This document shows, in pieces, positions 1-25,909 of a stretch of 64,000 nt of DNA (position 1 is the first letter of the stretch; the number at the start of each line of letters is the position of its first letter). The stretch is from Paenibacillus tundrae (GTDB lineage: Bacteria; Bacillota; Bacilli; Paenibacillales; Paenibacillaceae). The notes below the pieces were generated by a model. The model was not told the origin of the DNA. It ran no database searches and saw only the letters and a program-made list of their open reading frames with translations. A program made the position numbers and the translations under genes. The stretch lies in contig NZ_CP145605.1 of assembly GCF_036884255.1 (NCBI RefSeq), positions 1,674,001 to 1,738,000 on the forward strand, in the 5' to 3' direction.

Positions 1-141
1 AAAGATCGTATGATTAAAGTAAAGTATAATTTGAAGACTGCAAGAAGCGCTTTAAAACTGGGATTTGAATTATCAGATATTATGAAAATCACAGAAATTC
101 CACACAAATACATAGAAATATTAAAAGAAAAATATAGTTGA
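1..141 (+). CDS. C-terminal end of an unknown protein, cut by window edge
   Basis: An open frame enters from the left edge and ends at TGA 139-141, giving 46 residues. The tail is Lys-rich and helical, with a pattern (ALKLGFELSDIMKITEIP) that resembles the short helix-turn-helix tails seen at the C-terminus of Rpn/PD-(D/E)XK transposase-like proteins. That resemblance is weak and only inferred. Nothing can be said about the rest of the protein. Confidence 0.5.
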   Translation, partial: KDRMIKVKYNLKTARSALKLGFELSDIMKITEIPHKYIEILKEKYS

Positions 142-195
142 TATAAAGGGATGGTATAAGAAGTATAAGTGATTCGAAGAAGCTTCTGATATCCA

Positions 196-230
196 ATAAC
201 ATAATATTCACGCTGCGGGCACATGCCCTT
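196..230. repeat. attC-like element E1, left arm only
   Basis: Left arm ATAACATAATATTCACGC at 196-213 followed by a small hairpin GGGC-ACAT-GCCC (217-228). It matches the left arm at 3156 almost base for base, and the preceding bases (GTGATTCGAAGAAGCT versus GTGATTCAAAGAAGCT) are shared too. The matching right arm is not visible before the next gene, so the copy appears truncated. Confidence 0.6.
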
Positions 231-263
231 GATTTATCAGAAAGACTATAAAGGAGGGAGAAG

Positions 264-950
264 ATGAAGCTTTTTTCTGGAGTAGAGCCCTTAATTCAAG
301 AAGCTGATCTTTTACAACCCTCAATATATACGCCACTTGGAACCATTGAGTTTTCGCTTTCTGTCTCCAACAAATGTTATCTTCCAACTCAATGTTTTCG
401 ACTCAAACAAGGTGGTTCATTATACCAGTATAGCTATGACTTGTTTGATTGCGAATTAGTGGTCTGCAAACCTAAGCTCGATCTTGCTTCGCATCTGACA
501 ATCGAGGAATGTTGGGGAGCCGTATTTAGAATTCAACCGAATAAAAACCGTCAGATTGATACATGTAGTTTTTCTTCTTATTGGCAGGAGGGATACAGCT
601 GGAAAGATTACGGCTCTAATACCGGGGAACATCTTGAAGCTATTGAGTATGAGAACGAGAAATACCGATTACATGTAGGAACTCAGGATGGAGAGCTTTT
701 AATGGCAAGACGAGATCGAGGCGATATGATTCCTAAATCGCTAAATTTGAATTCAGATTTTGAGAAACATGGTTTTATTATAAGTTCAGATCAAGGCATT
801 GAAGTACCTATGACACGAATTGAATCTCAAGAGACATGCCAAGTACATTTTTTAACAGCTTGGAATCGAAAGATAGAAGAAGATATTTCCACATGGCTAG
901 CGGTAGATTTACTTTCGAAACAAATACTAGAGGGAGAAGAACTTTTGTAA
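264..950 (+). CDS. hypothetical protein (228 aa)
   Basis: A 228-residue soluble protein starting at ATG 264 behind a strong site (AAAGGAGGGAG at 250-260). I do not recognise the family. It has no signal peptide or membrane segment; it is rich in Trp, Tyr and acidic residues and probably forms a mixed alpha/beta fold. It stands alone between elements E1 and E2, as expected of a single-gene cassette. AT-rich base use matches the surrounding array. Confidence 0.75.
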   Translation: MKLFSGVEPLIQEADLLQPSIYTPLGTIEFSLSVSNKCYLPTQCFRLKQGGSLYQYSYDLFDCELVVCKPKLDLASHLTIEECWGAVFRIQPNKNRQIDTCSFSSYWQEGYSWKDYGSNTGEHLEAIEYENEKYRLHVGTQDGELLMARRDRGDMIPKSLNLNSDFEKHGFIISSDQGIEVPMTRIESQETCQVHFLTAWNRKIEEDISTWLAVDLLSKQILEGEELL

Positions 951-1009
951 ACATGTTCAAAAGAAGTTTCTAGTCCATCCGATAACATGATGGCTTAGCT
1001 TATACATCA

Positions 1010-1160
1010 CCTAACACATTGTTCATGTTGTGGACTTTCGTCCCTTGGTTGTGAGGTGTATAATAATGGAAGATAATCAGACAACAAACGCTCCAGCCCA
1101 AGATAAGAGCTATCTAAGGCTGGGGCGTTTCTTGAATACAGGAACTTTAGCAGAAATTAG
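1010..1160. repeat. attC-like element E2 with internal hairpin
   Basis: Left part CCTAACACATTGTTCATG (1010-1027) with a small hairpin GGAC-TTTC-GTCC (1032-1043). The middle is a long stem-loop (about 1088-1129: GCTCCAGCC paired with GGCTGGGGC) with an inner AGATA/TATCT stem. The right part is CTTGAATACAGGAACTTTAGC (1131-1151). Element E6 at 6225-6370 has the same order of parts and the same AAGATAAGAG...ATCTAAGG core, but different outer stem bases that still pair. Confidence 0.55.
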
Positions 1161-1218
1161 GGGAATGCTTAATTATTATAAAGATTAGATAAACTATTAT
1201 CTAAGGGTGGGGATTTCG

Positions 1219-1836
1219 ATGAGTAGCTTGTTACTAACTTCGTGTGGTTTTAATACTGAAGATATTAAGAATCAATTTCTGAGTTTGATTGAAAGAGATA
1301 TTTCTCAATTAAATGTATCTATTATTACAACAGCATCCCCTATGAAAGAAAATAATAGATATGCACAAAGGGCAGTGCAGGACTTCAAAGACATGGGGTT
1401 TCAGCATATTGATTTTGTAGATATAGAGTTTGATGATCCGCAACTTCTCATACATAGCGATGTTATATATATCAATGGTGGAAATCCATTTACATTATTG
1501 TTTTACGCTAAGAAAAGTGGTGCTGATGAAATTATTAAAACCTTGGCCGCACAGAATGTAATTATAGTTGGAGTGAGTGCTGGGACGTTATTACTGGGGC
1601 CGAATATTAACATTGTCGATTTCTTTACTCCACAGATGAACACAATGGATTTAACTGATTTTAAGGCATTAGGTCTAATCGACAAACTTATTTTTCCTCA
1701 CTATGATCGAGAGGACAAATTTAAAGATAGTACGAATAAAACAATAGAAGAGAGAATAGTAGCATTTGAATCCAATGAGAACTGTAAGGTGACAAGGCTT
1801 AAAGATGAAGAATATATCTCAATCTTAGTGGACTAA
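1219..1836 (+). CDS. peptidase S51-like / class I glutamine amidotransferase-like protein
   Basis: A compact protein of about 205 residues with the S51 (peptidase E) layout. The N-terminal strand MSSLLLTSCG is followed by a TTASP turn, a YINGGNP segment, and the nucleophile elbow GVSAG with Ser as likely nucleophile; a later PHYD segment may contribute His. Members cleave Asp-containing dipeptides or have unknown roles. An upstream in-frame GTG at 1207 exists, but GGTGGGG at 1206-1212 sits correctly for ATG 1219. A nucleotidyltransferase gene follows after 22 bp, so the two share one unit between E2 and E3. A second S51 protein lies at 18418. Confidence 0.8.
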   Translation: MSSLLLTSCGFNTEDIKNQFLSLIERDISQLNVSIITTASPMKENNRYAQRAVQDFKDMGFQHIDFVDIEFDDPQLLIHSDVIYINGGNPFTLLFYAKKSGADEIIKTLAAQNVIIVGVSAGTLLLGPNINIVDFFTPQMNTMDLTDFKALGLIDKLIFPHYDREDKFKDSTNKTIEERIVAFESNENCKVTRLKDEEYISILVD

Positions 1837-1858
1837 GCATGTTTTAGGAGGGGTCTAC

Positions 1859-2620
1859 ATGATATTAGAAAAAGTAATAAATAGAGTTGAAATACAAAGT
1901 GAATATAAGGATTTGGTTGATAAGTATATAGATCATGTACGTACCGAATTCAAAGGTGAAATTCATAGCATTTATATGTGCGGCTCAATTCCCAAAGGAA
2001 CTGCTACACCTTTTAAGTCAGATGCAGACTTTACGATTGTATGTGAAAATCCCAAAGGTATCGATTACGAAAGATTGTCGAATATCAAAGACAGGCTTTT
2101 GGAAGAATATCCATTCGTCACTAAGATTGATACGATAATTTGCTCTATAGACGATGTATTAAATAAACCGAATGAGTGGGGGTTCTGGGTTAAGATCATA
2201 TGTGTTTGTATACATGGGGATGACATTGGTGAAAAAGTACCCCCGATCATTATTTCTCCAGAATTCATTTTAGACTTAAATACAGAGACAAAGGAGGAAG
2301 TAGATCGTATACATCGTTCACTTTCTAATACTAGTGATAACGCATTAAAAACTAGATATATTAAAGGTTACTCTAAGAGATTAATTCGTGCATTATACTC
2401 TTTGGTTATAGTAGATACAGGTGTATGGCAAGATGACATGCTTAAGATGAAGAATGCTATATTAGACTATTGTGACATTGACTCCGCTTTAGTTGATTAT
2501 CTGTACGCTTGTTACTTGGATTTTAATAGTGTACTTGTTGAAGAGTTTCTGGAAATTGCTGATGAAGTATATAGCTATTTTGAAAATGTCTTAAAGGCAA
2601 TGGCTGCTTCCAGAAATTAA
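1859..2620 (+). CDS. nucleotidyltransferase domain protein (253 aa)
   Basis: A cytosolic nucleotidyltransferase-fold protein. Residues about 40-60 carry the signature CGSIPKGTATPFKSDADFTI, that is GS-x3-G...S-D-x-D, where the two Asp bind metal. A third strand (KIDTIIC) follows, and the C-terminal half is helical as in aminoglycoside adenylyl- or other small-molecule nucleotidyltransferases. The substrate cannot be named; antibiotic modification is possible but not shown. The ribosome site AGGAGGGG lies 7 bp before ATG 1859. It follows the S51-like gene closely. Confidence 0.8.
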   Translation: MILEKVINRVEIQSEYKDLVDKYIDHVRTEFKGEIHSIYMCGSIPKGTATPFKSDADFTIVCENPKGIDYERLSNIKDRLLEEYPFVTKIDTIICSIDDVLNKPNEWGFWVKIICVCIHGDDIGEKVPPIIISPEFILDLNTETKEEVDRIHRSLSNTSDNALKTRYIKGYSKRLIRALYSLVIVDTGVWQDDMLKMKNAILDYCDIDSALVDYLYACYLDFNSVLVEEFLEIADEVYSYFENVLKAMAASRN

Positions 2621-2621
2621 T

Positions 2622-2722
2622 TCGGATAATAAAATATTGACGCTTCGGATTACTCTGAGAAGCGATTGACGTCATCCAGTCCTCTAAGCCGGTTGGGGAC
2701 GTCACTGCTTTAGTTATTCGGT
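2622..2722. repeat. attC-like element E3 (divergent)
   Basis: Left arm CGGATAATAAAATATTGACGC (2623-2643), then hairpins CGCTTC/GAAGCG and TGACGTC...GACGTCA. The right arm GTTATTCG (2713-2720) pairs with CGGATAAT over 8 bp with two wobbles. The arm order agrees with E4 and E6, though the sequence is less conserved. Confidence 0.4.
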
Positions 2723-2814
2723 AAGCCAACTATAAGCAGCAACTCTAAGGGGTTAGTACGTCATCAATATAAATCATTTATTAAAATTGCTTAATTGCAA
2801 TTAGAGGTGGAATT

Positions 2815-3132
2815 ATGGAGAAAGATCCAAATTTAAGACCAAGACTTTTAAGTTGGAAATTCGATGATGAAGTTGAAACAGATCATGAGGAAGAATGGAA
2901 TTGGATAGAAATCACCATGTATTTCACGGATGGTTCAAAAAGATGGAGTATTTTGTATACACCAGAAAGATTATTAAATAACTTATCTAGACCAAACATT
3001 GATCCACCAGGTTTACATATGCAACAACTGATTGTAGTTAGAAGCTATGAAGTAAGTGATATTGACAGAGTGTTAAGAGTTTTTGATGAAGAAGATGAAT
3101 TGATTAAAGCCTCAAGAGCATATAGTGAGTGA
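2815..3132 (+). CDS. hypothetical protein (105 aa)
   Basis: A small acidic protein with ATG 2815 behind AGAGGTGG. It has no membrane segment, and no motif ties it to a known family. Its C-terminal half (QLIVVRSYEVSDIDRVLRVF) may form a strand-helix unit. It is a single gene between elements E3 and E4. Confidence 0.7.
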   Translation: MEKDPNLRPRLLSWKFDDEVETDHEEEWNWIEITMYFTDGSKRWSILYTPERLLNNLSRPNIDPPGLHMQQLIVVRSYEVSDIDRVLRVFDEEDELIKASRAYSE

Positions 3133-3155
3133 TTCAAAGAAGCTAAAAACATCAT

Positions 3156-3248
3156 ATAACATAATATTCACACTGTGGACATGCGTCTTGATCTGGCATT
3201 AGTCAGCCGCTCTATACGTTGATTCGTGAATACAAAGATGTTATGTGA
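3156..3248. repeat. attC-like element E4, complete
   Basis: This is the clearest copy. The left arm ATAACAT + ATTCAC (3156-3171) is matched by the right arm GTGAAT + ATGTTAT (3226-3244). The two stems are separated by an unpaired spacer that is longer on the right, and about 55 bp of loop lies between the arms, including GGAC-ATGC-GTCT. This layout of two short stems, spacer and variable loop in about 93 bp is like an integron attC site. The canonical GTTRRRY core is not met exactly (GTTATGT). Confidence 0.65.
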
Positions 3249-3276
3249 AATTCACAAATTAAAAGGAAGATAATCT

Positions 3277-4440
3277 ATGAAAAAATTTTTGAAGGTCATT
3301 ACGATAATTCTAATGACGTCAATGTTGCTTACAGGATGCATTTATTCAAACACTGAAGTGACTATTAATGAAAATGGTTCGGGTAGCGTAAAACATGTCG
3401 TTGGTTTCGATAAAAATATGTTAAACAAGCTGGGAAAAACGTATCAGGACTTTACTAGCAAAAGTAACCAATCCTATGAAATTACATATAGTGGTAAAAA
3501 ATATACTGTAGGTACATATGAGGACAAATTTATAGAAGATATTAACGATTCCGGTGTTGCAACTATTTCAAATGAAATGGGACTCGTATCTCTTAACAAA
3601 ATATATGAAGGGTTTGAGTTGAAACTTGAACTTCATGACTTTATCAGTAAGGACATGAGATATGATACCAAATTTCCCGAGGTTAAAGACATTTCCGATA
3701 AAACACTTAGAGACATGCGACTTAAAGATCTCATTGCACAGGATATTGATGGACTGGTACTCAAGGTGAAATTCAGCATGCCCTATCAGGTAAAACAAGT
3801 TTCTGGCGGAACTAGTGGAGTGTATGTAAATGGAAAAACTATTCAATTAGATTATCTGAAGATGATTGAATCCGGTAGCCGCGAATGGAAATTCGAATCT
3901 AGGAAGAACCCTAATAAAGTTGATCCAAACAATACAATATTCAAGGACGTTAAAAAAAACGCATGGTATGCCAAGGCAGTGCTCGAAGTTAACAGCAAGG
4001 GGATTATGAAGGGGTTTGGTGATGGGACATTCAAACCAAACGACACACTTACCATGGCAGAGCTTGCAAAAATTGCTTCAGAAGTGGCAGGACAACGAAT
4101 TCCTAACCATCCAGAGTACTGGGCAATGGGGCATATTCTCTTTGCACAAGACACCGGACTATTTCTTGAGAAAAAGACGATCACAGCAAAAAATTGGAGC
4201 GTACCTGCCACGCGTGAGCAAACCGTGTATGCTATTTCAATGGCAGCAGGACAGCAAGATGTCAAAGAAGTACCATCGACTTCAATTACAGACTGGAATC
4301 AGATCGATAACAGAATGCAGAGTATGATTCTCTATGCATATCAAGCAGGGATCGTCAGTGGGAATTCTAACGGAAAGTTTGAACCAAAAAGTAAGGTGAC
4401 ACGTGCAGAAGTAGCGCAAATTTTGAATAATATCAAGTAA
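3277..4440 (+). CDS. lipoprotein with C-terminal S-layer homology domains
   Basis: A 387-residue exported lipoprotein. The basic start MKKFLKVI is followed by a hydrophobic stretch and lipobox LLTGC (Cys about residue 21). The middle (about 25-210) is a beta-rich domain with a repeated NENGSG-type start, similar to DUF3153-like lipoprotein domains. Residues about 220-387 hold three SLH-type segments; FKDVKKNAWYAKAV and GFGDGTFKPND open the first, and the last contains GKFEPKSKVTRAEVAQIL. SLH repeats bind pyruvylated wall polymer, so the protein may bridge membrane and wall. It is in one unit with the next gene. Confidence 0.85.
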   Translation: MKKFLKVITIILMTSMLLTGCIYSNTEVTINENGSGSVKHVVGFDKNMLNKLGKTYQDFTSKSNQSYEITYSGKKYTVGTYEDKFIEDINDSGVATISNEMGLVSLNKIYEGFELKLELHDFISKDMRYDTKFPEVKDISDKTLRDMRLKDLIAQDIDGLVLKVKFSMPYQVKQVSGGTSGVYVNGKTIQLDYLKMIESGSREWKFESRKNPNKVDPNNTIFKDVKKNAWYAKAVLEVNSKGIMKGFGDGTFKPNDTLTMAELAKIASEVAGQRIPNHPEYWAMGHILFAQDTGLFLEKKTITAKNWSVPATREQTVYAISMAAGQQDVKEVPSTSITDWNQIDNRMQSMILYAYQAGIVSGNSNGKFEPKSKVTRAEVAQILNNIK

Positions 4441-4487
4441 ATGAATAATTCAGTAAATCCAAACCTTTAATCTTGGGGGCACTGCTA

Positions 4488-4907
4488 ATGCCAAATAAAA
4501 TTGAGATATTTCCACCGTATGAAAAAGAAAAAGTATCAATTATTTCTGTTTTAGAACGTATTGATAAAAAAGCTAGATTCGTTAGACAGAGTGGGCCGCC
4601 AGGAAGATTCGCCAGTATTGATATTGTAATCGAGCCATATGAAGGCAGTATTATCTTTGAGAATGAAGCACGAATTCAAGAAGATTTGAAAGGCGACAAT
4701 GAATGGGAATTAGGGTTTCCTATGATTATATGTGCCATATTTGATGCTTTAAAATCCTATATTCAAAATTCTTATGATGAACATAACCTCGCCATAGGGA
4801 ATTTCAAATTTAAACTAATAAACATTGATATTCACAAATATGATAGTAAATTAATGGATTATAAGATAGCAACGTTGATAGGCCTAAAAGAAGTTTTTAA
4901 AGTGTAA
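4488..4907 (+). CDS. hypothetical protein (139 aa)
   Basis: A small soluble protein with no recognised family. A TTG at 4473 lies in frame, but the GGGGG run at 4475-4479 is placed for ATG 4488. The protein is mixed alpha/beta, with a charged N-terminus (EIFPPYEKEKVSII) and no transmembrane segment. It lies 47 bp after the SLH lipoprotein and just before element E5. Confidence 0.65.
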   Translation: MPNKIEIFPPYEKEKVSIISVLERIDKKARFVRQSGPPGRFASIDIVIEPYEGSIIFENEARIQEDLKGDNEWELGFPMIICAIFDALKSYIQNSYDEHNLAIGNFKFKLINIDIHKYDSKLMDYKIATLIGLKEVFKV

Positions 4908-4962
4908 CTGAACATATCACCGTCCGTCCCAGTTCCGTGAATATAAAGATGTAGACGAAACG
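4908..4962. repeat. attC-like element E5, short copy
   Basis: The right arm GTGAATATAAAGATGTAGACG (4937-4957) matches the E4 right arm GTGAATACAAAGATGTTATGTG. The short left part TGAACATATCACCG (4909-4922) resembles ACATAATATTCACG. The loop is only about 14 bp. Confidence 0.45.
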
Positions 4963-4988
4963 AATGATATAAGGTGGTAATTAACTAG

Positions 4989-5618
4989 ATGTCTATTCAA
5001 CAATTTATAAATGAACATCTCTCTAATATAATCTTTGAACCACCATTCTATTACAATAATGATTTTAGTATCCGGTTTGAACTGGGACCACCAAACAGCA
5101 ATATTGATAATGACACATACTATAGTGTAGTCCAGGAGAGAATCCTTGCCTTATTTCTAGCAATATTTAAAGAGAAGTATCCGGTTTATATTGTTGGGGT
5201 ATCATATGAACCTATTGAAGATTTAGATGCTTATATTGAAGAGGAAATTGACCTTCTTCAATATTTTGCAGACCATACAATTGAAAATTTTCTTAACAAA
5301 GAAGACTATGACGATGAAACACTAGAGTTGACTGGACATTATAAATTTTACTCTCTTGAATGCAAACTGTCCGAGATAGACTATATTGATTTGTTAGGAC
5401 TTATTGGAGGATTTACTCAGAAGAATAGTTACCTTAATTCAAGAATTTACTTCATAGATCCTCAATCCCAATTGGTTTTTCACATTTATGATGATCGTGG
5501 TTTAGACATCGTCTCACCGACTAAGGAAGCCTTGCTTTACTTGTACAAGGAATTTAACGATTGGATTCTTGATTACGATCGGAAAGAGATAGATAAGATA
5601 TTTAAGAGTATTTCATAG
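4989..5618 (+). CDS. DUF3885-like hypothetical protein (209 aa)
   Basis: An acidic cytosolic protein. The C-terminal part (YFIDPQSQLVFHIYDDRG, then SPTKEALLYLYKEFNDWILDYDR) matches my recollection of DUF3885 proteins, whose hallmark is a YDDRGxD turn followed by a YNDWILDYDR helix. Function is unknown. ATG 4989 follows AAGGTGG at 4972-4978. It lies just after E5. Confidence 0.7.
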   Translation: MSIQQFINEHLSNIIFEPPFYYNNDFSIRFELGPPNSNIDNDTYYSVVQERILALFLAIFKEKYPVYIVGVSYEPIEDLDAYIEEEIDLLQYFADHTIENFLNKEDYDDETLELTGHYKFYSLECKLSEIDYIDLLGLIGGFTQKNSYLNSRIYFIDPQSQLVFHIYDDRGLDIVSPTKEALLYLYKEFNDWILDYDRKEIDKIFKSIS

Positions 5619-5678
5619 AAATCAATTGACCCGAACGTAAACAAAAGCACGGGGGTTTTGTGGAGAGGAGGCGGAAAT

Positions 5679-6149
5679 GTGATTGGTCCGATATTCTTAA
5701 GAGGTGATTTAATTCATCAGTTTAAAGAGCACCTCACCAACACTGAATACCATCGTGTAATACATAACGGTGTAGCCGATACCAATAGTACAACTGAAAG
5801 ATTCGAATTGGAAAAACTAAATGATACATTCGATACATTTATTAACTCAGACTATCCTATCATTTGTAAGTCAGGCAGCAAGAGTACAATTCCATTCTGG
5901 GATTACCACATTGCAATCAACCGTTCCAAATAGGACAAAGAGGTTATTGTAACTGAACTTTTGGTTCGAGAACCTAATGATCAGAACATAACAAATGCAG
6001 TTTTAATGGCGTTCTATATGTTAATTAATGAGAGGTACAAGTATGAAAGATTAGTAGTGCCAATAAGAATGAATGACATCGTTGAATATGAAGAAATAGG
6101 GATACAATCTCACAAAGATGGAAGCGTTCTATTTAGAAAATATGCGTGA
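5679..6149 (+). pseudogene. hypothetical gene interrupted by an in-frame amber codon
   Basis: GTG 5679 sits 8 bp after AGAGGAGGC and opens a frame that meets TAG at 5931-5933. The same frame then continues without interruption to the TGA at 6147-6149, so the original protein was about 156 residues. The second half would otherwise have to start at TTG 5961 with no ribosome site. The simplest reading is a nonsense mutation in one gene. The family is not recognised. Confidence 0.6.
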
Positions 6150-6224
6150 GTCATTGCTATTCCGTTATTCTATGAAATTCCTTATATTGAAATGGATTTT
6201 AGTAGATAGTGCAATGCGGCATAG

Positions 6225-6370
6225 CCTAACATTATAATCACGCTTCGGGCTTACTCCTATGGTCATCCAGATGTATAATTATAGGAGATAACTCGGACGA
6301 TACGCGAGCCGATCTAAGATAAGAGTTTATCTAAGGTCGGCTCGCGTCGTGAATCCAGGAACGTTATGTA
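6225..6370. repeat. attC-like element E6 with internal hairpin
   Basis: Left arm CCTAACATTATAATCACGC (6225-6243), right arm CGTGAATCCAGGAACGTTATG (6348-6368). Between them a strong stem-loop (about 6303-6346, CGCGAGCCGA paired with TCGGCTCGCG) carries the core AAGATAAGAG...ATCTAAGG shared with E2. Arms pair through TAAC/GTTA and TCACG/CGTGA. Confidence 0.6.
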
Positions 6371-6409
6371 GAAATAACGAAGAAAAAACGTTGTTGGGGG
6401 TTGAATCCA

Positions 6410-7234
6410 TTGAAGTATTCAACTGTAGTTCTTGACTTGGACGGAACATTATTGAATTCAAATAAAGAAGTATCCAAGAGGAATTTAGATGCTGTCTTAT
6501 CTTGTTATCTGAAAGGAATGAGAATAATATTCGCAACAGCTCGACCGCCCAGGGCTGTTAATTGGTTTCTTCCTCAAGAATTATTGGATATCGGGGCTTT
6601 TGTATATTACAACGGAGCTCAAGTGATCTGTAAGGAAACCAAGATAGAAATTAATGAATCAATCCCTGCTAATGTAACCACAGAAATTCTTGATTACTGT
6701 TTGAAGTGTAACCCCGAGATTGAGCTGACGATGGAAGTAAGAGATGAGTGGTTTAGTTTAAGAGAGCTTGATTATATTACCTCAATGAACACACGATCAA
6801 ACCCTATAGTAAAACCCTTAAATGAATTAAAGCAATATGATGCTACGAAGATACTCCTTTCCGGCAATAATGACAGTTCTGGATTATTAAAAAAATTCGA
6901 AGGTAAAGTGAATATACTGATTACGGATAATCATCAATTAATACAAATCATGCCTCTTCTCGCCTCTAAGGAGCTGGCGATTGCTAAACTCTGTGAATTG
7001 TATCATGTAGAATTGGATTCCGTTATTGTATTTGGTGATGACCATAATGACGTAGGCCTCTTTAAGAAGGCTGGATACGCTATTGCTATGGGGAATGCAA
7101 TAAAGGAATTGAAGGAAATTGCTGATGAAATAACCGCTAATAATGATGAGGATGGTGTAGCTATAAGTTTAGAAAGATTTTGTGGGTCACGTAGACTGTT
7201 TGAACGTCAGGATGGCGCGAAGGGTTTTGGATAA
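6410..7234 (+). CDS. Cof-type HAD hydrolase (about 274 aa)
   Basis: A cytosolic phosphatase of the HAD superfamily, Cof subtype, acting on small phosphorylated metabolites. Motif I DLDGTLL gives the nucleophile Asp near residue 10, motif II is FATARP, and motif IV GDDHNDVGLF lies near the C-terminus, ending in the usual AMGNA...DEDGVA. TTG 6401 touches the GGGGG ribosome site, so TTG 6410 is the better start. The last 16 or so residues (CGSRRLFERQDGAKGFG) do not look like a Cof tail and probably come from sequence fused downstream at the remnant that follows. Confidence 0.85.
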   Translation: MKYSTVVLDLDGTLLNSNKEVSKRNLDAVLSCYLKGMRIIFATARPPRAVNWFLPQELLDIGAFVYYNGAQVICKETKIEINESIPANVTTEILDYCLKCNPEIELTMEVRDEWFSLRELDYITSMNTRSNPIVKPLNELKQYDATKILLSGNNDSSGLLKKFEGKVNILITDNHQLIQIMPLLASKELAIAKLCELYHVELDSVIVFGDDHNDVGLFKKAGYAIAMGNAIKELKEIADEITANNDEDGVAISLERFCGSRRLFERQDGAKGFG

Positions 7235-7421
7235 TCTTCATAAATACTTATTTTTTTGGAGGCATCTCAAGAATATATCCTTCAGAGATGCATTAATTAG
7301 TAATCCTGAATTTGTAGTTGAATATGCCAATCTAAAGAAAGAGCTAGTTAATAGTTATAGTGAAAATCGACAGGCTTACACGGATGGGAAAACCGAATTT
7401 GTAAATAAAGTACTGATGTGA
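7235..7421 (+). pseudogene. C-terminal remnant of a GrpB/UPF0157 family gene
   Basis: The frame ending at TGA 7419-7421 reads FFWRHLKNISFRDALISNP and then EYANLKKELVNSY...AYTDGKTEFVNKVL. This is the conserved C-terminal helix pair of GrpB (UPF0157) nucleotidyltransferase-like proteins, which are normally about 170 residues. The N-terminal two thirds are absent and the frame runs back into the end of the HAD gene. It looks like a deletion or recombination scar. Confidence 0.6.
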
Positions 7422-7465
7422 AATCACAGTAAATCTATTTATCAGAGCGGCTCAAGGAGGTCTAA

Positions 7466-8026: not shown

Positions 8027-8074
8027 ATATATTTAAGCTTAGCTCTACAGAAGTTTATGAAAAGGAGAAGATCA

Positions 8075-18327: not shown

Positions 18328-18417
18328 AATCCCTTTCAATTTTCAGAAATAGATCGAGCTGGAATACAATATTATATAAACGAAACACTCGTATAGAATT
18401 TTGGGAGGTGCGTACCA

Positions 18418-19146: not shown

Positions 19147-19235
19147 CTTCTCATTAGGAAACTATCGAGAGCGGAAAAAGTAGCAATTCAGCGTAAGAGT
19201 GTAAGGAATAAAAAGGATTAGATCACAATTCATAG

Positions 19236-19333
19236 AATACTACCTTTATACTTGAAGAAAGGTGGTATTAACATGTATTTTCCAATAAAGATTCGTCACC
19301 TCTCTCAATTCTAAAAAATTGAGGAGGGTAAAT
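19236..19333 (+). promoter_or_regulatory. structured leader that can hide the ribosome site of the kinase gene
   Basis: Two alternative folds are visible. AATACTACCTTT (19236-19247) pairs with AAAGGTGGTATT (19258-19269). CTCAATT (19304-19310) pairs with AATTGAG (19317-19323), and this stem can extend outward so that ACC at 19298-19300 faces the GGAGGG ribosome site. The GGTG part of the first stem can also pair with CACC at 19297-19300, making the folds mutually exclusive. The AAGGTGGTA piece recalls a T-box core, but the rest of a T-box is not evident. Confidence 0.4.
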
Positions 19334-19975
19334 ATGAAAGTAAACGATAATTATTTAAAAGAACAATTAAAGCATGTTTATTGGTTAAATGGTGGTTGTT
19401 GCGCGGGGAAGACCACCATGACTAGGAAATTTGTGGAGGAATTGAGATTTCAAACTCTTCGGGATGATGTCTTGAAGTATAGATCATTCACTAGCCATGT
19501 TGAATACCCTGCGCTTCAATATCCTCATCCTAAATTGGATTGGGACAAATGGTTTAACAGACCGAATGATGAACATTGTGAATGGCTTTTTCAAATTGTC
19601 AAAGAAATGATGGAGTTTTTTGTCATCGATTTGTTGAAGATGCCTAATGATCAGCCAATTATAATAGACCTAGGGATCATGCCAGAGGAAATATTGCCGT
19701 TTATCCCCAAGGAAAGAATCGTATGCCTCTATACTTCTGATCAAGAGATTGAGAGGCTATATTATTTTAGAGAAGATCATAAAATGATTCTGGATGTTAT
19801 TAACCGTACGGCTAACCCAGAGGAATCAATAAAGAATGGTAACAAAAACATGGTGAAGTTTTCTCACGATATTAGAGAAGCCTGCATTAAACATGGTATC
19901 AAAACAATAGAAAGAACACCTGAATTGAGTGTTGATGAACAATTTAAATTAGTTCGCGGGCACTTTGGAATATGA
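19334..19975 (+). CDS. AAA/P-loop kinase-like protein (213 aa)
   Basis: A cytosolic P-loop NTPase. Walker A is GGCCAGKTTM near residues 19-28, and a later PIIIDLGIMPEEILPFIP strand may carry the Asp. The rest is helical with a DxxR-type lid (YYFREDH). It resembles small-molecule kinases of unknown substrate found in Bacilli. ATG 19334 follows GAGGAGGG. A decayed partial copy of the same gene lies at 13366. A strong terminator follows. Confidence 0.75.
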   Translation: MKVNDNYLKEQLKHVYWLNGGCCAGKTTMTRKFVEELRFQTLRDDVLKYRSFTSHVEYPALQYPHPKLDWDKWFNRPNDEHCEWLFQIVKEMMEFFVIDLLKMPNDQPIIIDLGIMPEEILPFIPKERIVCLYTSDQEIERLYYFREDHKMILDVINRTANPEESIKNGNKNMVKFSHDIREACIKHGIKTIERTPELSVDEQFKLVRGHFGI

Positions 19976-20000
19976 ATTAATAAATTCTATTAATGAACGC

Positions 20001-20031
20001 CAACAGGCTGCCGAGATTAGGCAGCCTGTTG
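20001..20031 (+). terminator. terminator hairpin
   Basis: A perfect 12-bp stem CAACAGGCTGCC / GGCAGCCTGTTG with a 7-base loop, flanked by TTAATG and CATTAA which can lengthen it. The run of T is short (ACTTTT at 20042), so termination may be partial. Confidence 0.7.
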
Positions 20032-20088
20032 CATTAACGCAACTTTTATATCAAATTAGTTCGTCCAAAACATGTAGGAGATGATAAT

Positions 20089-20622
20089 TTGCGGATTAGA
20101 GAAGCTACGATTCATGACGCTGAAGGAATTGCAAGAGTTCATGTGGATAGTTGGAGAACGACATACAAGGGGATTATTCCAGAGGAATTTTTAAACAATC
20201 TATCGTATACACAAAGGACTGAATTATGGATTAACAATATCAAGAAAACAGATAATTTTGTAATACTGGCAGAGAATACAAAAGGAGAAATCATTGGATT
20301 TGCAGATTGTTGGAAGAGAGAGACAAATACGGTGCCCAACGCAGGCGATTTGACTTCAATTTACATACTTGAGGAATACCAAGGGAATGGATTAGGGAAG
20401 GAATTACTTAAAAGTATATTTAATCGATTCAATTCATTGGGTTACCAGAAAATATTCGTTGATGTTCTAGAGGATAACAAGACACGCTATTTTTATGAGT
20501 ATTATGGAGCTCACTTATCTAAATCAGTTCAAATAAAAATTGGAGGAAAAGTCCTTAATGAATTAATCTATGAATGGGATAACGTTGACGAAGTATTAGC
20601 GAGATTAACTAAAACTAATTAG
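20089..20622 (+). CDS. GNAT family N-acetyltransferase
   Basis: A 177-residue acetyl-CoA-dependent acetyltransferase. The start IREATIHDAEGIARVHVDSW is typical of the phosphinothricin/RimI-like branch; LTSIYILEEYQGNGLGKELL contains the acetyl-CoA loop (QGNGLG), and the RYFYEYYGA strand-helix follows. Substrate unknown. TTG 20089 is the start, 8 bp after TAGGAG. Confidence 0.88.
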   Translation: MRIREATIHDAEGIARVHVDSWRTTYKGIIPEEFLNNLSYTQRTELWINNIKKTDNFVILAENTKGEIIGFADCWKRETNTVPNAGDLTSIYILEEYQGNGLGKELLKSIFNRFNSLGYQKIFVDVLEDNKTRYFYEYYGAHLSKSVQIKIGGKVLNELIYEWDNVDEVLARLTKTN

Positions 20623-20676
20623 TGGGAATTTATGAGTTATCAAGTAAATGATATGAGAGAAAACGTAGGAGGAGAA

Positions 20677-21126
20677 ATGAACAAGGTAAATCATTTTGAA
20701 ACGAAGCTTGCACCTCGTTATGATGACAGTGACCCTGATCAAGAAGGAAATAAAAATGTGGTTTTTGCTGATTGGATCATTGATGGGAAATCCCTCTATC
20801 AGATGCTTAAAAAGTACGAATTTGTACCAAGTTTAGGCTGGGGGACAGAAGAGGAACAGCAAGAGTCTATTGATTATTTTCTGCTGAAGCAACTACATCC
20901 AGTCTTATATTATAGGTACCCCATATTAGTGTGTCCTTGGTGTAAGGATGAAGATTGCGGTTATGTATCAGTATTGATTGAAAGGGAAGGGGATTTTGTA
21001 AGGTGGAGCGATTTTAGATTAGAACCACATAATAGAAAAATTGATCTAGAATCGTTCACTTTCAAGTGGAATGATTATAAGAGAGAGATTATTCGTACAT
21101 ATAGAATGGCAGCGATGAATAGCTAG
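20677..21126 (+). CDS. hypothetical protein with CPWC motif (149 aa)
   Basis: An acidic protein starting at ATG 20677 after GTAGGAGGAG. It contains VVFADWIIDGKSLYQMLKKY, a GWGTEEEQ turn and VCPWCKDEDCGYVSV, where three Cys could bind a metal. Similar proteins occur in Paenibacillus genomes as uncharacterised ORFs, from memory. No function assigned. Confidence 0.65.
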   Translation: MNKVNHFETKLAPRYDDSDPDQEGNKNVVFADWIIDGKSLYQMLKKYEFVPSLGWGTEEEQQESIDYFLLKQLHPVLYYRYPILVCPWCKDEDCGYVSVLIEREGDFVRWSDFRLEPHNRKIDLESFTFKWNDYKREIIRTYRMAAMNS

Positions 21127-21164
21127 AGAAGAAGTTTAAAAAGAAGATAGGAAGTGAGAAGAAT

Positions 21165-21524
21165 TTGAATTTAATGCAACTCAAGATTCCAGCAGGTTAT
21201 GCAGTGACCTATAACAAATTCTACGATGTAGACCCTGTTCTTAGTGCAGATAGTGACTACTTTATTGAGAATTGGGGATTCTTCACAGAAGATTTATTAC
21301 AGATCGTTAAAATGAAAATCAACAATGGGAAGTGGTTTATTCCTGAAAGAGAAGACACGATACTCTTTGATCTAGGATGGTATCCAGATTCAGATATTAA
21401 CGGCCATTACCGTCTGGAACTTGTTGATGGGGATTGGAATGAAATTAAAAGCATTTCTTCTAAAGATCGATTTGTAATTAAAGAGCAACTTGAAGAATGG
21501 TTGGAAGAACAACTAAGAGTGTAA
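21165..21524 (+). CDS. hypothetical protein (119 aa)
   Basis: A small cytosolic protein with LKIPAGYAVTYNKFYDVDP at the start and DLGWYPDSDINGHYRL in the middle. The layout recalls the uncharacterised YdhH-type proteins of Bacillus, but I am not certain. TTG 21165 suits the AGGAAGTGAG site better than ATG 21174. Confidence 0.6.
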   Translation: MNLMQLKIPAGYAVTYNKFYDVDPVLSADSDYFIENWGFFTEDLLQIVKMKINNGKWFIPEREDTILFDLGWYPDSDINGHYRLELVDGDWNEIKSISSKDRFVIKEQLEEWLEEQLRV

Positions 21525-21620
21525 ACAGAAACAACCGAGATCTGAAGATTATTTGAATAAATACGCTCAGAAGACATACAGGGAGGTTACTTCAATAATA
21601 ACTCCAGGAGGATTCTGCTA

Positions 21621-21851
21621 ATGAGGAAGAGATATTCTATTGAAAAAGCAGAGTGGTCAGAAACAAGAGAAAAGGAGTATGAGCAAGAATGTAGAGATAT
21701 TGTGTTTAAGTTCGACGATGAGCTTGTTCAGCGGGAGAACGTTATTTATTTAAATAGAAAAGATGGTCAATCTGTAGTAGTAGAGCCTTTGAATCAAAAA
21801 ACATTTTGGTATGAAACATGGTTGAAGATTAAAGACATCTACAGTACTTGA
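21621..21851 (+). CDS. small hypothetical protein (76 aa)
   Basis: A charged 76-residue protein with ATG 21621 after CAGGAGGAT. Its stop TGA (21849-21851) shares its last base with the ATG of the following TetR-like frame, so the two are coupled. There is no recognised domain. It may have lost its original 3' end at this junction. Confidence 0.55.
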   Translation: MRKRYSIEKAEWSETREKEYEQECRDIVFKFDDELVQRENVIYLNRKDGQSVVVEPLNQKTFWYETWLKIKDIYST

Positions 21852-22345
21852 TGATGGAAAAAGAATTTGATCAAATTACGATTCAAGATATTTCGGACAG
21901 AGCAGATGTTAGTCGAAGGACCATCTATCTTCACTACATGGACAAATTCGATCTTCTGGATCAGCTCATCAAAGAACATATTGATGACTTAAGAAGGATC
22001 TGCAATTCTACAGACGATAACACGGATTATGAGAATATGGGGTTGGTGTGGTTCCAGTACTTCGAGAATCATTCGATGTTCTTTTCTGCATTACTAGCGA
22101 GTAAAGGTAGCCCTTTTTTCCGCGATCAGTTCCTTACGTTTTTCATCGAAGAACTAGAGAAAGAAAACGGCATGTCCGAAGGGTGTAACTCTGAATTAAC
22201 GGAGGGTATGAATGTGGATATTCAGTTCCTGGGGTCAGCGATCGTTGGCGTAGTGGAGTGGTGGTTTAAACAAGGGAAGCCTCCTACTCCTTCCTTTATG
22301 GCGCAGCGAGTGGGCGTATTGCTTGAAAGAAATCTGGAGATATAA
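21851..22345 (+). CDS. TetR-like regulator lacking its N-terminal helix
   Basis: A regulator of about 164 residues. The helix-turn-helix FDQITIQDISDRADVSRRTI and the YLHYMDKFDLLDQLI segment are typical of TetR/AcrR proteins with a C-terminal ligand domain (TetR_C_7-like). The usual 20 or so residues before MMEKEFDQ, including helix 1, are missing because the frame begins at the stop of the upstream gene. There is no own ribosome site; translation would need coupling through TGATG. It may be a 5'-truncated gene with impaired DNA binding. Confidence 0.7.
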   Translation: MMEKEFDQITIQDISDRADVSRRTIYLHYMDKFDLLDQLIKEHIDDLRRICNSTDDNTDYENMGLVWFQYFENHSMFFSALLASKGSPFFRDQFLTFFIEELEKENGMSEGCNSELTEGMNVDIQFLGSAIVGVVEWWFKQGKPPTPSFMAQRVGVLLERNLEI

Positions 22346-22410
22346 ATGTTGATGTGAAGAAGAATGTTAGATGGAATTCGAGTAGAATAATTCTAAGAGG
22401 GAGGATATAC

Positions 22411-23130
22411 ATGGAAACATTAAAAAGTAAGCTTGTCCAGTATAAGGCAGGTCATATACTCGAAGTAGGCACAGGAACAGGGAAGTTTATTCCGATGATG
22501 TTGAATATATTTAATGGAATTGACCAGATTGTGGGCATTGATATGGATCATGAAGCAATACTCCAAGCAAAGAACACCTACATAGAAAATACTAAAATTG
22601 ACTTTGTTGCAATGAACGCTGAGCAGTTAAGTTATGAAGATCATACTTTTAATACGGTATGCATATCGAATGCATTACATCATATGCCCCCAGAATCCAA
22701 AGTATTAGATGAGATGAAAAGGGTTTTGAAGAGTGATGGGTTATTCCTAATTAACGAATTGTTTTGCGATGGTCAAAATGAAGCACAATTATCTCATGTG
22801 ATGTATCATCATTTTAGCGCTGGAATTGATCGACGATTAGGGATTTACCATAGTCAGACTTATACAAAACAACAAATTTTAGATCTGATTAGGGATAAAG
22901 GAATAAGAGTAGAGATTGTGTATGAATACAATGAATCCAAGGGAAATGTAAGAGCTGAGCAAGATATTGTTTTAGTCACAGAGGCATGTCGAAAACATAT
23001 AGAGAGAACTAAGAATTTATCGGACTACATTGAATTCAAAAGACGTGGGGAAGAAATTATTGAACGGCTTAATAACATAGGTATTCAACGACCTACACAA
23101 CTCATGGTATTAGGAAAAGTCGAAGCATAA
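22411..23130 (+). CDS. class I SAM-dependent methyltransferase
   Basis: A 239-residue methyltransferase. Motif I is ILEVGTGTGKFIP (about residues 16-28), followed by VGIDMDHEAI, then AEQLSYEDHTFNTVCISNALHH and MKRVLKSDGLFLINE. This is a UbiE/Methyltransf_11 layout; substrate unknown. ATG 22411 follows GAGGGAGGAT, better than upstream in-frame starts. Confidence 0.85.
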   Translation: METLKSKLVQYKAGHILEVGTGTGKFIPMMLNIFNGIDQIVGIDMDHEAILQAKNTYIENTKIDFVAMNAEQLSYEDHTFNTVCISNALHHMPPESKVLDEMKRVLKSDGLFLINELFCDGQNEAQLSHVMYHHFSAGIDRRLGIYHSQTYTKQQILDLIRDKGIRVEIVYEYNESKGNVRAEQDIVLVTEACRKHIERTKNLSDYIEFKRRGEEIIERLNNIGIQRPTQLMVLGKVEA

Positions 23131-23192
23131 ATTTATTGGAGGACGATTTAAGTGAAATTGAGAAAAATCAAAATTTACAAAGGAGAGGTAAT

Positions 23193-23933
23193 ATGTTTAT
23201 AGACCTTTTTAATAGACTTAGTATCACATTACCTATTGTACTCATTGAGGAGTTAGAAGCTCACTATAAGAAACAGAAGGATCAGGAGTACTTGTTAAGA
23301 TTAATGGAATTTGACGAAGTCATTGAAATGGCCGAATTATTGTCTGAAATGAAGGTGTATCAAGACATTATTCCTTTATGGACAGATGATCATTCGAACT
23401 ACATAGGTTTACAGGTTCAGGGTGCTTGCAAATACAGAATTAGTTATATCGATCATGAAGAAACAGATGTATCTCCAGGTTTTAGAAGTGTACGTTCTTT
23501 TATATCGAAACTCGAACAACATCCTAGTTATGATTGGGACGAGTTGGAGAAAGATTATCCCTCAGATATAGAAATTAGTGATGCTGAGATGGAGGAAGAC
23601 TTACGTTGTATTGAAGCGTTAAACAAGCTGATAAATTCTAACCCACTAATAGATGACGATATCCGTTGTCAGTATATTTTTTCAGTTATGGCGTTAACAC
23701 CGAAAAGGAATCTTGACTCATTAATACCATATTTGGATGATGAAGATATGTATGTTCAAGAGAGAGCGTGTGAGATTCTTGGTTTTCATAGATACATTCC
23801 AGCTAGAGATAAGTTAATAGAGGTTTCGACAAACGGAATGCATAATGGGAAACTCGCAGCGAAAAGAGCGTTAGCAAGAATAAGAGAAGAGAACCAAGGA
23901 GCATTCTACTGGAGCCAAGATATAAAGAAATAA
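23193..23933 (+). CDS. SMI1/KNR4-like protein with HEAT-type C-terminus
   Basis: A 246-residue soluble protein. The N-terminal half (LPIVLIEELEAHYKK, LIPLWTDDHSNYIGL) resembles SMI1/KNR4 (SUKH) domains, which in bacteria often act as toxin-immunity proteins. The C-terminal half (SLIPYLDDEDMYVQERACEI, LAAKRALARIRE) is a HEAT-repeat-like helical pair. ATG 23193 follows AAAGGAGAGG; an earlier in-frame start at 23136 lacks such a site. Confidence 0.7.
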   Translation: MFIDLFNRLSITLPIVLIEELEAHYKKQKDQEYLLRLMEFDEVIEMAELLSEMKVYQDIIPLWTDDHSNYIGLQVQGACKYRISYIDHEETDVSPGFRSVRSFISKLEQHPSYDWDELEKDYPSDIEISDAEMEEDLRCIEALNKLINSNPLIDDDIRCQYIFSVMALTPKRNLDSLIPYLDDEDMYVQERACEILGFHRYIPARDKLIEVSTNGMHNGKLAAKRALARIREENQGAFYWSQDIKK

Positions 23934-23976
23934 GAGAATATAACGGACTAATACTAAATGATAAAGGAATTCATCG

Positions 23977-24255
23977 ATGAAATTGTACTTATTTATTATT
24001 CAAAGCTTCTATGTGTTGACCTTAATGCCTTGGTTCATCATTTGGGGATTATCTTTCATGGCATTTGATAGTGGAGTTTCAATGTGGGGAGTAGCACTTG
24101 TAACGATCGTTACGTTGTATCCTTTGGCTGTTGTCATTAGTTCGGTTCTATCTTGGTTATTAAAGAAAAAGGTAAAGACGTTAGGCCTTATTCTAATCAG
24201 TTCATTTCCACTTCTGTGGGTGATTTCATTTGCAGTTTTGATATTAGGAAATTGA
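23977..24255 (+). CDS. small integral membrane protein (92 aa)
   Basis: Three hydrophobic helices (LYLFIIQSFYVLTLMPWFII, VALVTIVTLYPLAVVISSVL, LGLILISSFPLLWVISFAVL) separated by a short KKKVK loop. No family recognised. ATG 23977 is preceded by AAAGGAA. Confidence 0.65.
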   Translation: MKLYLFIIQSFYVLTLMPWFIIWGLSFMAFDSGVSMWGVALVTIVTLYPLAVVISSVLSWLLKKKVKTLGLILISSFPLLWVISFAVLILGN

Positions 24256-24311
24256 ATGAAGAATAAAACTAGGAGTAGAGAGCTCCAATCAAAGAGACAA
24301 GGAGATTAGAA

Positions 24312-24806
24312 ATGGAGTCTTTATCCGTTCGATTGGAGATTGAAGAACTCATTAAAAAGTGTTCAATCAACAGGCAGGAACTGTTTGAAGTCCGAAAAGA
24401 TCAGTGGAAATCCATTTTAGATCATATCGAAAAGCACTTTCTAAAGAAGATTCATTATACTCAAGACTTGCATTGGGGATGGAATAGACTTCAAGAACCG
24501 TATTACGCATTGAGGTTTATCGAGCAACCTTATAAATCCATTAAAGAGATTATTAAAGATGAATTTATATGGTTTATTGCTGAAGACCACAACGATAAAA
24601 TGTGGGTTTATGAAGGGGAAAAGAATATTATTTTCGATAAAATAATTCCTGAACTTTACCATTTGGACGAATACTTTCTGGTATCGAAGAAATATGAATG
24701 GCTCGTATGTGAAGATCATCATGAGATTGTACATTTCTCAGGGGAAGGCATCATTAATCAAGCGAAGAAGTTTGAATTAGAGAACGAGAGCAAGATAATT
24801 AAGTAA
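24312..24806 (+). CDS. DUF6756-like hypothetical protein (164 aa)
   Basis: A cytosolic protein with FIAEDHNDKMWVYEGEK and YFLVSKKYEWLVCEDHH, a pattern I associate with DUF6756 proteins of unknown function. ATG 24312 follows CAAGGAGA. It is followed by attC-like element E8. Confidence 0.6.
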   Translation: MESLSVRLEIEELIKKCSINRQELFEVRKDQWKSILDHIEKHFLKKIHYTQDLHWGWNRLQEPYYALRFIEQPYKSIKEIIKDEFIWFIAEDHNDKMWVYEGEKNIIFDKIIPELYHLDEYFLVSKKYEWLVCEDHHEIVHFSGEGIINQAKKFELENESKIIK

Positions 24807-24840
24807 ATGCTCAGTTAGAAAGGAAAGTTACGGACTTCAT

Positions 24841-24882
24841 ATTACATAATTTTCACGCTGTGACTCCTTACGGGTCTTATTG
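24841..24882. repeat. attC-like element E8, left arm
   Basis: ATTACATAATTTTCACGCTGTG (24841-24862) matches the left arms of E1 and E4, followed by the hairpin GACTC-CTTAC-GGGTC (24862-24876) and TTATTG. No right arm is seen before the next gene, as in E1. It shows the family reaches nearly to the end of the AT-rich array. Confidence 0.55.
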
Positions 24883-24898
24883 AAAGGGTGGATGGAAG

Positions 24899-25447
24899 TT
24901 GATACAGGGAGAATTAATCTATAAAACAATAGACTCGCTTAAGAAAAGATTGGAAAATAACAACCTGCTAGAATTACAGCTTCAAGAGGGTTATTTAACT
25001 CAAGCTACCTGTACGTTTAATGAGCCGGCAGATGAAAGTGATTTAATCGAATTCCAAAGGAAATTAGGGTTTGAACTTCCGAATGATTATATTAACTTTT
25101 TGAAGATAAGTAATGGTTGCTCGTTATTTGACCATCCGCAACACGGAGGAGAGGCGTATTTATATAAGTGGCAGGATATCCAAGAAGCAACGTATGAGAG
25201 TTCAAACGAGGGGTACCTGAAGATCGCCTATATCTACCAAGATAATATCGTAATTGATCTGAAAAAATACAGCGAAGGCTCAAATAATTACTTAATGGTT
25301 AAGGGGTACATAGACAATTTTGATGAGTCGAGACCCTTTAATATGAACTTCGAGTTGTGGTTTGATCGATTTATTATCAGTCAGGGAGATAAATTTTGGG
25401 ACTGGTCAGTGTATACGGCAGAAAATTTCTATAAATTAAAAGGATAA
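24899..25447 (+). CDS. SMI1/KNR4 (SUKH) family protein
   Basis: A 182-residue SUKH-fold protein. The hallmark ADESDLIEFQRKLGFELP, DYINFLKISNGCSLF and WQDIQEATYES order is clear. Bacterial members serve as immunity proteins against polymorphic toxins or have unknown regulatory roles; no toxin gene is adjacent. TTG 24899 is the likely start after GGGTGGATGGAAG. Confidence 0.8.
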   Translation: MIQGELIYKTIDSLKKRLENNNLLELQLQEGYLTQATCTFNEPADESDLIEFQRKLGFELPNDYINFLKISNGCSLFDHPQHGGEAYLYKWQDIQEATYESSNEGYLKIAYIYQDNIVIDLKKYSEGSNNYLMVKGYIDNFDESRPFNMNFELWFDRFIISQGDKFWDWSVYTAENFYKLKG

Positions 25448-25486
25448 AGTACGCTTAGGCGATACTTTGTATGAGAGGAATTCAGA

Positions 25487-25909
25487 ATGAATTATAAATT
25501 TATGTTGAAGGGTTACCCATTATATTATCTATTTATATTTTTGCCTATTGGCTTTCTCTCTGTAATTACTTTATTAAGTAATTATATTGGTGATGGCCTT
25601 CGAGTAATACTACTGCTAACAACTGGGCTGATTGTGATCGCTCTAGTTATTAAAAATTGGATAGATTCACAAAAGGAATATACGATAGTGCTATCGCCCG
25701 AGGGAATAACAGTAAATAAGACGAACTATTCGATTAATCAAATTAGTGAAATGCGAATAGGTACTAATCTTCTTCAAATACATCTTCTCGATCAAAATAA
25801 AAAGCTATCTTTCTCGTTAAAAAGTCAGGATAAAGATAGCGTAATCAAGGCATTCAAAGAATACTGTGAAAACGCCGGGATAAAAGCAGAGGATTATCAA
25901 AAGGTATAG
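25487..25909 (+). CDS. membrane protein with cytoplasmic PH-like tail (140 aa)
   Basis: Two N-terminal transmembrane helices (LYYLFIFLPIGFLSVITLL, VILLLTTGLIVIALVI) are followed by a beta-rich domain (YTIVLSPEGITVNKTNYS...) ending in a helix (KAFKEYCENAG), as in DUF5673 or bacterial PH-like membrane proteins. It is the last gene of the AT-rich array and runs into a terminator-bearing repeat. Confidence 0.65.
   Translation: MNYKFMLKGYPLYYLFIFLPIGFLSVITLLSNYIGDGLRVILLLTTGLIVIALVIKNWIDSQKEYTIVLSPEGITVNKTNYSINQISEMRIGTNLLQIHLLDQNKKLSFSLKSQDKDSVIKAFKEYCENAGIKAEDYQKV

What the first reader, a model, noticed from the sequence alone, without database searches (positions are those of the whole stretch)
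1..25909. Integron-like cassette array: 25 kb of co-directional unrelated genes with attC-like repeats and no integrase in view
Seen: all genes from 1 to 25909 are on the + strand, AT-rich, mostly small and functionally unrelated. Repeats with left arm ATAACAT-ATTCAC and right arm GTGAAT-ATGTTAT lie between genes at 196, 1010, 2622, 3156, 4908, 6225, 9517 and 24841. The best copy (3156-3248) folds into two short stems separated by an asymmetric spacer with a variable loop, as in attC. Known: integron attC sites have R/L stems, an unpaired spacer, a variable end, and cassettes in one orientation. Inferred: a cassette-type capture system in a Firmicute. Against it: no tyrosine integrase here, the core GTTATGT does not fit GTTRRRY, and most gene gaps from 10 to 24 kb lack a copy.
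Basis: partly seen in the sequence, partly recalled or inferred. Interest (0 to 1): 0.85.

Follow-up and report, generated by a model that had tools for sequence, protein, structure and literature searches.

The report
Second integron class with HARP integrase
The window holds the old tail of an integron, a chromosomal row of small genes separated by hairpin-forming repeats, and 17 kb upstream lies a recombinase gene outside the known integron-integrase family that likely inserted these genes as cassettes; the same layout turns up in many other bacteria, where standard integron searches would likely miss it.

Summary
The repeats are real attC-type cassette sites, but the window shows only the decayed far end of the array. 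In the same Paenibacillus chromosome 19 sites in one orientation lie 0.9-23 kb behind a tyrosine-recombinase gene; 9 more form a second array. Three results identify an integron. (1) The left box of a site is complementary to the right box of the PREVIOUS site (142 of 224 neighbour pairs; own box 22 of 270; random mean 11.7), the mark of circular cassettes exchanged at G|TTA. (2) An attI 97-124 nt behind the recombinase is conserved up to G|TTA and differs beyond. (3) Three close relatives are collinear on both sides, but their integrase-proximal cassettes are almost wholly different. The recombinase is not IntI: the 41-residue IntI insertion is absent, a HARP-like N-terminal domain is added, and it forms its own clade. 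Homologues with attI and attC-like sites occur in Clostridia and in MAGs of Nitrospirota, Spirochaetota, Bacteroidales and one archaeal lineage. Eight literature searches found no description. The integrase of this genome is frameshifted, and activity is untested. Verdict: a genuine, apparently undescribed integron class without I2.

The parts
188..240 (+). attC half site: left arm CCAATAAC-ATAATATTCACG present, right arm lost
   Evidence: model hit 188-317, E 7.6e-6; sequence
1003..1159 (+). attC site ending cassette 17 (cassette starts left of the window)
   Evidence: model E 3.8e-8
1147..3240 (+). cassette 18: three ORFs (peptidase S51-like, nucleotidyltransferase-domain, unknown)
2618..2789 (+). 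degenerate attC remnant inside cassette 18
   Evidence: model E 2.8, marginal
3148..3253 (+). best attC site of the window
   Evidence: model E 6.2e-16
3241..6363 (+). cassette 19 (five ORFs of 60 aa or more, first with SLH domains); probably several old cassettes whose sites decayed, since a lone right arm lies near 4935
   Evidence: the decay is inferred
6218..6376 (+). last significant attC site, 23.3 kb behind the integrase
   Evidence: model E 6.2e-9
6401..25909 (+). co-directional small genes without significant sites, mostly collinear in relatives; old tail or neighbouring gene run
24833..24907 (+). possible attC remnant
   Evidence: model E 0.61, marginal

Best explanation
This is the distal tail of a chromosomal integron: a row of gene cassettes, each ended by an attC-type hairpin site, that a tyrosine recombinase encoded 17 kb upstream likely inserted at an attI site just behind its own gene. 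The recombinase (371 aa in a genome of the same species; frameshifted here) is not of the IntI family: it lacks the IntI-specific insertion I2 and has an extra HARP-like N-terminal domain. Shown by sequence: site architecture, attI, cassette boundaries at G|TTA, replacement of the integrase-proximal cassettes between close relatives, near-identical cassettes in different species and in different arrays. Inferred: that this recombinase catalyses the exchange; that one strand of attC acts in folded form, as in IntI integrons (the unpaired spacer is asymmetric, 4 against 7 nt); and that the HARP-like domain, a relative of branched-DNA-binding domains of fork-remodelling proteins, does the fold recognition that I2 does in IntI.
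For: Lag test: the four bases after GTTA pair with the left box of the next site in 142 of 224 pairs, own site 22 of 270, next-but-one direction (lag +1) 13 of 224, random mean 11.7, maximum 29 in 5000 draws; independent set of 13 loci of other genera 66 of 87 against 10 of 113. attI: 14 of 18 integrase loci have, 97 or 123-124 nt behind the stop, a box that matches the first attC in 9 of 9 bases; pairwise identity 0.88 left of G|TTA, 1.00 in TTA, 0.42 right of it (14 loci). Turnover: G000, G034 and G037 93-98% alike in front, 17.5/18.5/7.8 kb almost wholly different, then collinear. Cassettes: 58 pairs over 85% alike, 24 of them between an 'a' and a 'b' array; with different right neighbours (54 pairs) left box identical in 27, right box in 5. 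Co-occurrence: 56 genomes with the integrase, median 20.5 sites; 19 without, median 9.0; p 1.2e-5. Not IntI. HARP. Other phyla.
Confidence: 0.88

Rival explanations
1. It is an IntI-family integron whose integrase lost the I2 domain; a deviant member of the known family and not a separate class.
For: One clade with IntI is not rejected (AU p 0.27 and 0.32); Foldseek's first match is IntI4; the C-terminus ends in SPLD as in IntI.
Against: The shorter interval is found in 111 of 111 measured homologues and 63 of 63 measured named loci, across phyla; IntI (97/96) and the HARP integrases (90/93) are separate clades with non-integron recombinases of the same short interval in the tree; IntI hits lack the N-terminal motif (0 of 120); XerA structures fit as well as or better than IntI4.
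Confidence: 0.2
2. The repeats are terminators or REP-like palindromes, and the genes moved by homologous recombination between repeats.
For: Repeats fold stably in both strands; near-identical cassettes could recombine through flanks.
Against: Neither predicts complementarity to the previous site and not to the own one, a conserved attI ending at G|TTA, or one orientation (298 sites forward, 1 reversed).
Confidence: 0.03
3. The cassettes are moved by another recombinase (host Xer or an integrase elsewhere), and the adjacent gene is a passenger.
For: Arrays without a nearby integrase exist: the second array of this genome has no IntI-model hit near it, and 18 of 19 genomes without the integrase have sites; the own copy is broken.
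Against: attI sits 97-124 nt behind this gene in 14 of 18 loci and within 50-300 nt in 27 of 35 loci of other groups; genomes with the gene have more sites; the catalytic residues are conserved in the 41-protein alignment.
Confidence: 0.05

Closest known systems
IntI integrons, in particular sedentary chromosomal integrons
   Same: Tyrosine recombinase next to attI, one-way array of mostly single-gene cassettes, attC with R and L boxes, unpaired spacer and variable terminal part, crossover at G|TT, insertion next to the integrase, cassettes shared between species.
   Different: No I2 domain, HARP-like N-terminus, core GTTAnnnG instead of GTTRRRY (70 of 270 fit), R pairing extended to about 14 bases, branched terminal hairpins, integrase gene in the same direction as the cassettes with attI behind its 3' end. 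The usual divergent orientation of intI is recalled, not looked up.
CALIN (clusters of attC lacking an integron integrase)
   Same: Array B at 2606.7-2614.9 kb and the arrays of genomes without the integrase.
   Different: The sites are of the new type.
XerA / Xer recombinases
   Same: Nearest family model (212.6 bits, cut-off 220) and nearest solved structures together with IntI4.
   Different: Extra N-terminal domain; linked to cassette arrays and an attI.
HARP / UvsW / XPB-type branched-DNA-binding domains
   Same: Weak but repeated sequence match of the N-terminus (12 of 17 members, best 6.9e-7) and similar predicted fold.
   Different: Those domains sit on ATP-driven helicases or translocases; here the domain sits on a recombinase.

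Membership tests
Integron (IntI type) | Integrase with the IntI-specific additional domain (I2) | tested here: not met
   interval from lysine motif to HxxR box 67-71 residues in 111 measured of 121 homologues; IntI 108-109 in 101 measured of 120; TIGR02249 196.7 bits, cut-off 265, match split
Integron (IntI type) | attI next to the integrase gene | tested here: met
   14 of 18 loci; conservation ends at G|TTA
Integron (IntI type) | Array of attC sites in one orientation with paired R and L boxes | tested here: met
   19 and 9 sites in the own genome; 298 forward, 1 reversed before merging in 24 arrays; folds
Integron (IntI type) | Core GTTRRRY | tested here: not met
   70 of 270 right boxes fit; 266 of 270 begin GTTA
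Integron (IntI type) | Cassette gain and loss with crossover at G|TT next to attI | tested here: met
   sequence traces only:
Integron (IntI type) | Recombination of the folded bottom strand of attC by the integrase | not testable with these tools
   needs a strand-specific assay
Integron (IntI type) | SOS (LexA) control of the integrase gene | tested here: inconclusive
   no box with under 3 mismatches to a recalled consensus in 12 loci
Integron (IntI type) | Cassette promoter Pc | not tested
   -
XerA/Xer recombinases | Score over the curated cut-off of NF040815, XerC or XerD | tested here: not met
   212.6 of 220, 195.2 of 335, 194.0 of 330 bits
HARP domain (PF07443) | Match over the Pfam cut-off in the N-terminal domain | tested here: inconclusive

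The most novel reading that the evidence does not exclude
There is a second, separately evolved class of integrons, spread over many bacterial phyla and perhaps archaea, in which a Xer-like recombinase came to use folded attC sites by adding a HARP-type branched-DNA-binding domain instead of the I2 insertion of IntI: two solutions to the same problem, the second overlooked because detection tools ask for I2.
Probability: 0.5. Interest if true: 0.96.

Novelty: new variant of a known kind. Interest (0 to 1): 0.9.

Why it matters
Integrons are described as very rare in Firmicutes: IntegronFinder 2.0 reports one complete integron there, in Limnochorda pilosa, and a few CALIN (passages of PMC9024848). 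Here 74 of 75 genomes of one Paenibacillus group carry the sites, in arrays of up to two dozen called cassettes that pass between species. It also touches a stated open question: Escudero et al. (passages of PMC4792948) describe as a chicken-egg paradox how I2 and attC could have been selected without each other. A cassette system with attC but without I2 makes that question testable. Practically it predicts a large unsurveyed pool of cassette genes (HEPN, HNH, restriction-like, immunity-protein and acetyltransferase families among those seen).

Tried and rejected
Terminator or REP-like repeats: rejected by the lag test and attI. Another recombinase as the mover: disfavoured. IntI membership: the I2 test failed, a shared root is undecided (AU p 0.27 and 0.32). 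Rfam: no match at gathering score in the 20 kb of L011. Viral contigs: 80 of 552 relatives listed, best 49%, only 2 of the 80 matching before residue 80; not followed. Plasmids: 958 records match, all under 60% identity; first row a Chryseobacterium plasmid at 41%. Anti-phage library: weak hits in 4 of 10 proteins.

Corrected on the way: one search had a register error in the site scan (redone); one search counted 298 sites, of which 28 shared a right arm with a neighbour (merged to 270, lag test repeated). The interval measure missed IntI motifs (redone; 10 of 121 and 19 of 120 proteins stay unmeasured). Site counts per genome are lower bounds (48 candidates scored per genome, stricter filters). 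In one search, 5 of 21 chosen distant integrases were dropped because their plain translation held stops. In one search candidate sites had to hold TAAC/GTTA and an 8-bp inner stem, so divergent sites are missed; 33 of 68 loci had no usable first site. Site model outside the genus: 8 of 101 genomes drawn from the class have hits, 4 of them of this genus; the other 4 were not followed. The whole-model fold comparison spans mainly residues 93-358, so the N-terminus was predicted alone; Foldseek gave no match at E<=0.001 for it.

Literature: searches (integron terms; HARP terms) listed no description of this system; the library lacks preprints and most subscription papers. Read as passages only: PMC9024848, PMC8618304, PMC9668308, PMC8138268, PMC4792948, PMC4035279, PMC8946536, PMC6213257. 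All others: listing and start of the abstract.

Full report
What the window shows. The main ORFs from 1 to 25909 are on the + strand. The window lies at 1674001-1738000 of a 6.5-Mb chromosome.

The array starts outside the window. Seventeen blastn matches of one copy, all on the + strand, fall in two clusters. A fuller scan finds 19 sites at 1657.8-1680.4 kb and 9 at 2606.7-2614.9 kb; one further site is reversed. An intact site reads CnnnTAAC, 4 nt, TATTCACG, two or three hairpins, CGTGAATA, 7 nt, GTTAnnnGA. Of three copies folded as DNA, two are far more stable than shuffles (z -5.1, -7.5), the window copy is not (0.00).

Integrase and attI. The IntI model finds its best match in this genome, in two stretches, at 1656245-1656898, just before the first site. 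The gene is broken by a frameshift here and open over its whole length in the same species (G034, 371 aa) and in other species. Behind the stop codon lies a stretch that is alike between loci up to G|TTA (pairwise identity 0.88 over 40 nt); the three bases after TTA differ, and the next 37 nt fall to 0.42 (14 loci). In 14 of 18 integrase loci the nine bases from this GTT equal the complement of the left box of the first attC. That is what insertion of a circular cassette at attI leaves behind.

The lag test. In an integron the start and the end of a cassette were joined in the circle, so the left box of a site should pair with the right box of the site before it, not with its own. In 24 arrays from 18 genomes (270 sites) the four bases after GTTA match in 142 of 224 pairs at lag -1, in 22 of 270 at lag 0, in 13 of 224 at lag +1; random pairing gives a mean of 11.7 and at most 29 in 5000 draws. 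In the own genome alone it is 14 of 25 against 3 of 28. The match goes on to about 14 bases behind GTT, with a steady mismatch at bases 7-8. In 13 loci of other genera of the order the counts are 66 of 87 and 10 of 113.

Turnover. G000, G034 and G037 are 93-98% alike in the 3 kb up to the end of the integrase. The next 17.5, 18.5 and 7.8 kb share almost nothing (two displaced stretches between G000 and G034); beyond that the three are mostly collinear again. The window begins 17.1 kb behind the integrase, so it holds the old, shared tail. Among 229 cassettes, 58 pairs are over 85% identical; 24 of these pairs join an 'a' array to a 'b' array; in 54 pairs with different right neighbours the left box is identical in 27, the right box in 5. 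One pair (G014, G034) is 96.6% identical although the integrases of these genomes are 58% identical.

Contents. Of 30 proteins of the two own arrays scanned, 16 match a Pfam family at E<=0.001, among them DUF1643, HEPN, HNH, DUF4062, a DpnII-MboI-like nuclease domain, SUKH, YxiJ and (under its cut-off) WapI-like immunity proteins, GNAT and DinB. In 197 of 225 cassettes of the 24 arrays the longest ORF is on the array strand.

Spread. The site model hits 74 of 75 genomes of the genus; the integrase at E<=1e-30 is in 56 of 75. Genomes with it have a median of 20.5 sites, those without 9.0 (p 1.2e-5). In the order, 105 of 296 genomes hold a homologue at 1e-40, in a phylum sample 33 of 398 at 1e-50. 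In a class sample the site model hits 8 of 101 genomes. A named scan kept 80 of 569 relatives: Paenibacillus, Saccharibacillus, Cohnella, Clostridium, Halonatronum, Alkaliphilus, and MAGs titled Nitrospirae, Nitrospinae, Spirochaetota, Aminicenantes, Bacteroidales, Thermotogae, Gemmatimonadetes, and archaea. Behind these genes attC-like sites occur at 0.45 per kb, against 0.02 in front and 0.01 in shuffled sequence. In 27 of 35 loci with a first site the attI box matches it in 9 or 10 of 10 bases, against 6.5% for keys of other loci; the 27 include Nitrospirae, Nitrospinae, Spirochaetota, Aminicenantes, Bacteroidales, Thermotogae and one archaeal (Micrarchaeota) MAG.

How it likely works. By analogy with IntI integrons, a cassette circle is inserted at attI by one crossover at G|TTA and pushes older cassettes outward; the oldest, decayed ones make up the window. 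Strand use, catalysis and the role of the HARP-like domain are inferred. HARP domains of SMARCAL1 are needed for annealing activity at DNA forks (passages of PMC4035279), which is why this domain is a candidate reader of folded sites. The system works like an integron; it is not an IntI integron by two features tested and not met (I2, GTTRRRY); and it was not described in the papers that the searches named under Tried and rejected could reach.

Noticed in passing
L011:12724-12808 (-), chromosome 1672724-1672808, about 1.2 kb left of the window: A single attC-type copy in reverse orientation inside cassette 16 (E 2.8e-8).
   Followed up: no
L153 (Chryseobacterium sp. SNU WT5 plasmid NZ_CP041688.1), 5923-11732: A 347-aa recombinase of the same clade with the N-terminal motif, followed by + strand genes and three 90-98% identical repeats of about 209 nt that end in GTTA plus variable bases: possibly the same kind of array in Bacteroidota.
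   Followed up: partly
L163, L164, L165, L166, L175 (Bacillota outside the order): Relatives of the integrase followed by repeats with TAAC and GTTAnnnGA arms but different L boxes and hairpins.
   Followed up: partly
chromosome 2606681-2614925 (L012, L013): Second array of nine sites without an IntI-model hit nearby.
   Followed up: partly
G040 array (L067-L069), cassettes 1 and 6: Two cassettes of the same array identical over the compared part (100%): a recent duplication or double capture.
   Followed up: no
G001 (L070, L071) and other genomes: Some genomes carry two full or partial integrase copies tens of kb apart, many of them broken.
   Followed up: no
G723, G733, G749, G781: Four genomes of the class outside the genus have weak site-model hits (best E 8e-8); whether they are true sites is open.
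   Followed up: no
window 6401-25909: About 19 kb of small co-directional genes without significant sites, mostly collinear in relatives: very old cassettes or an unrelated gene run.
   Followed up: partly
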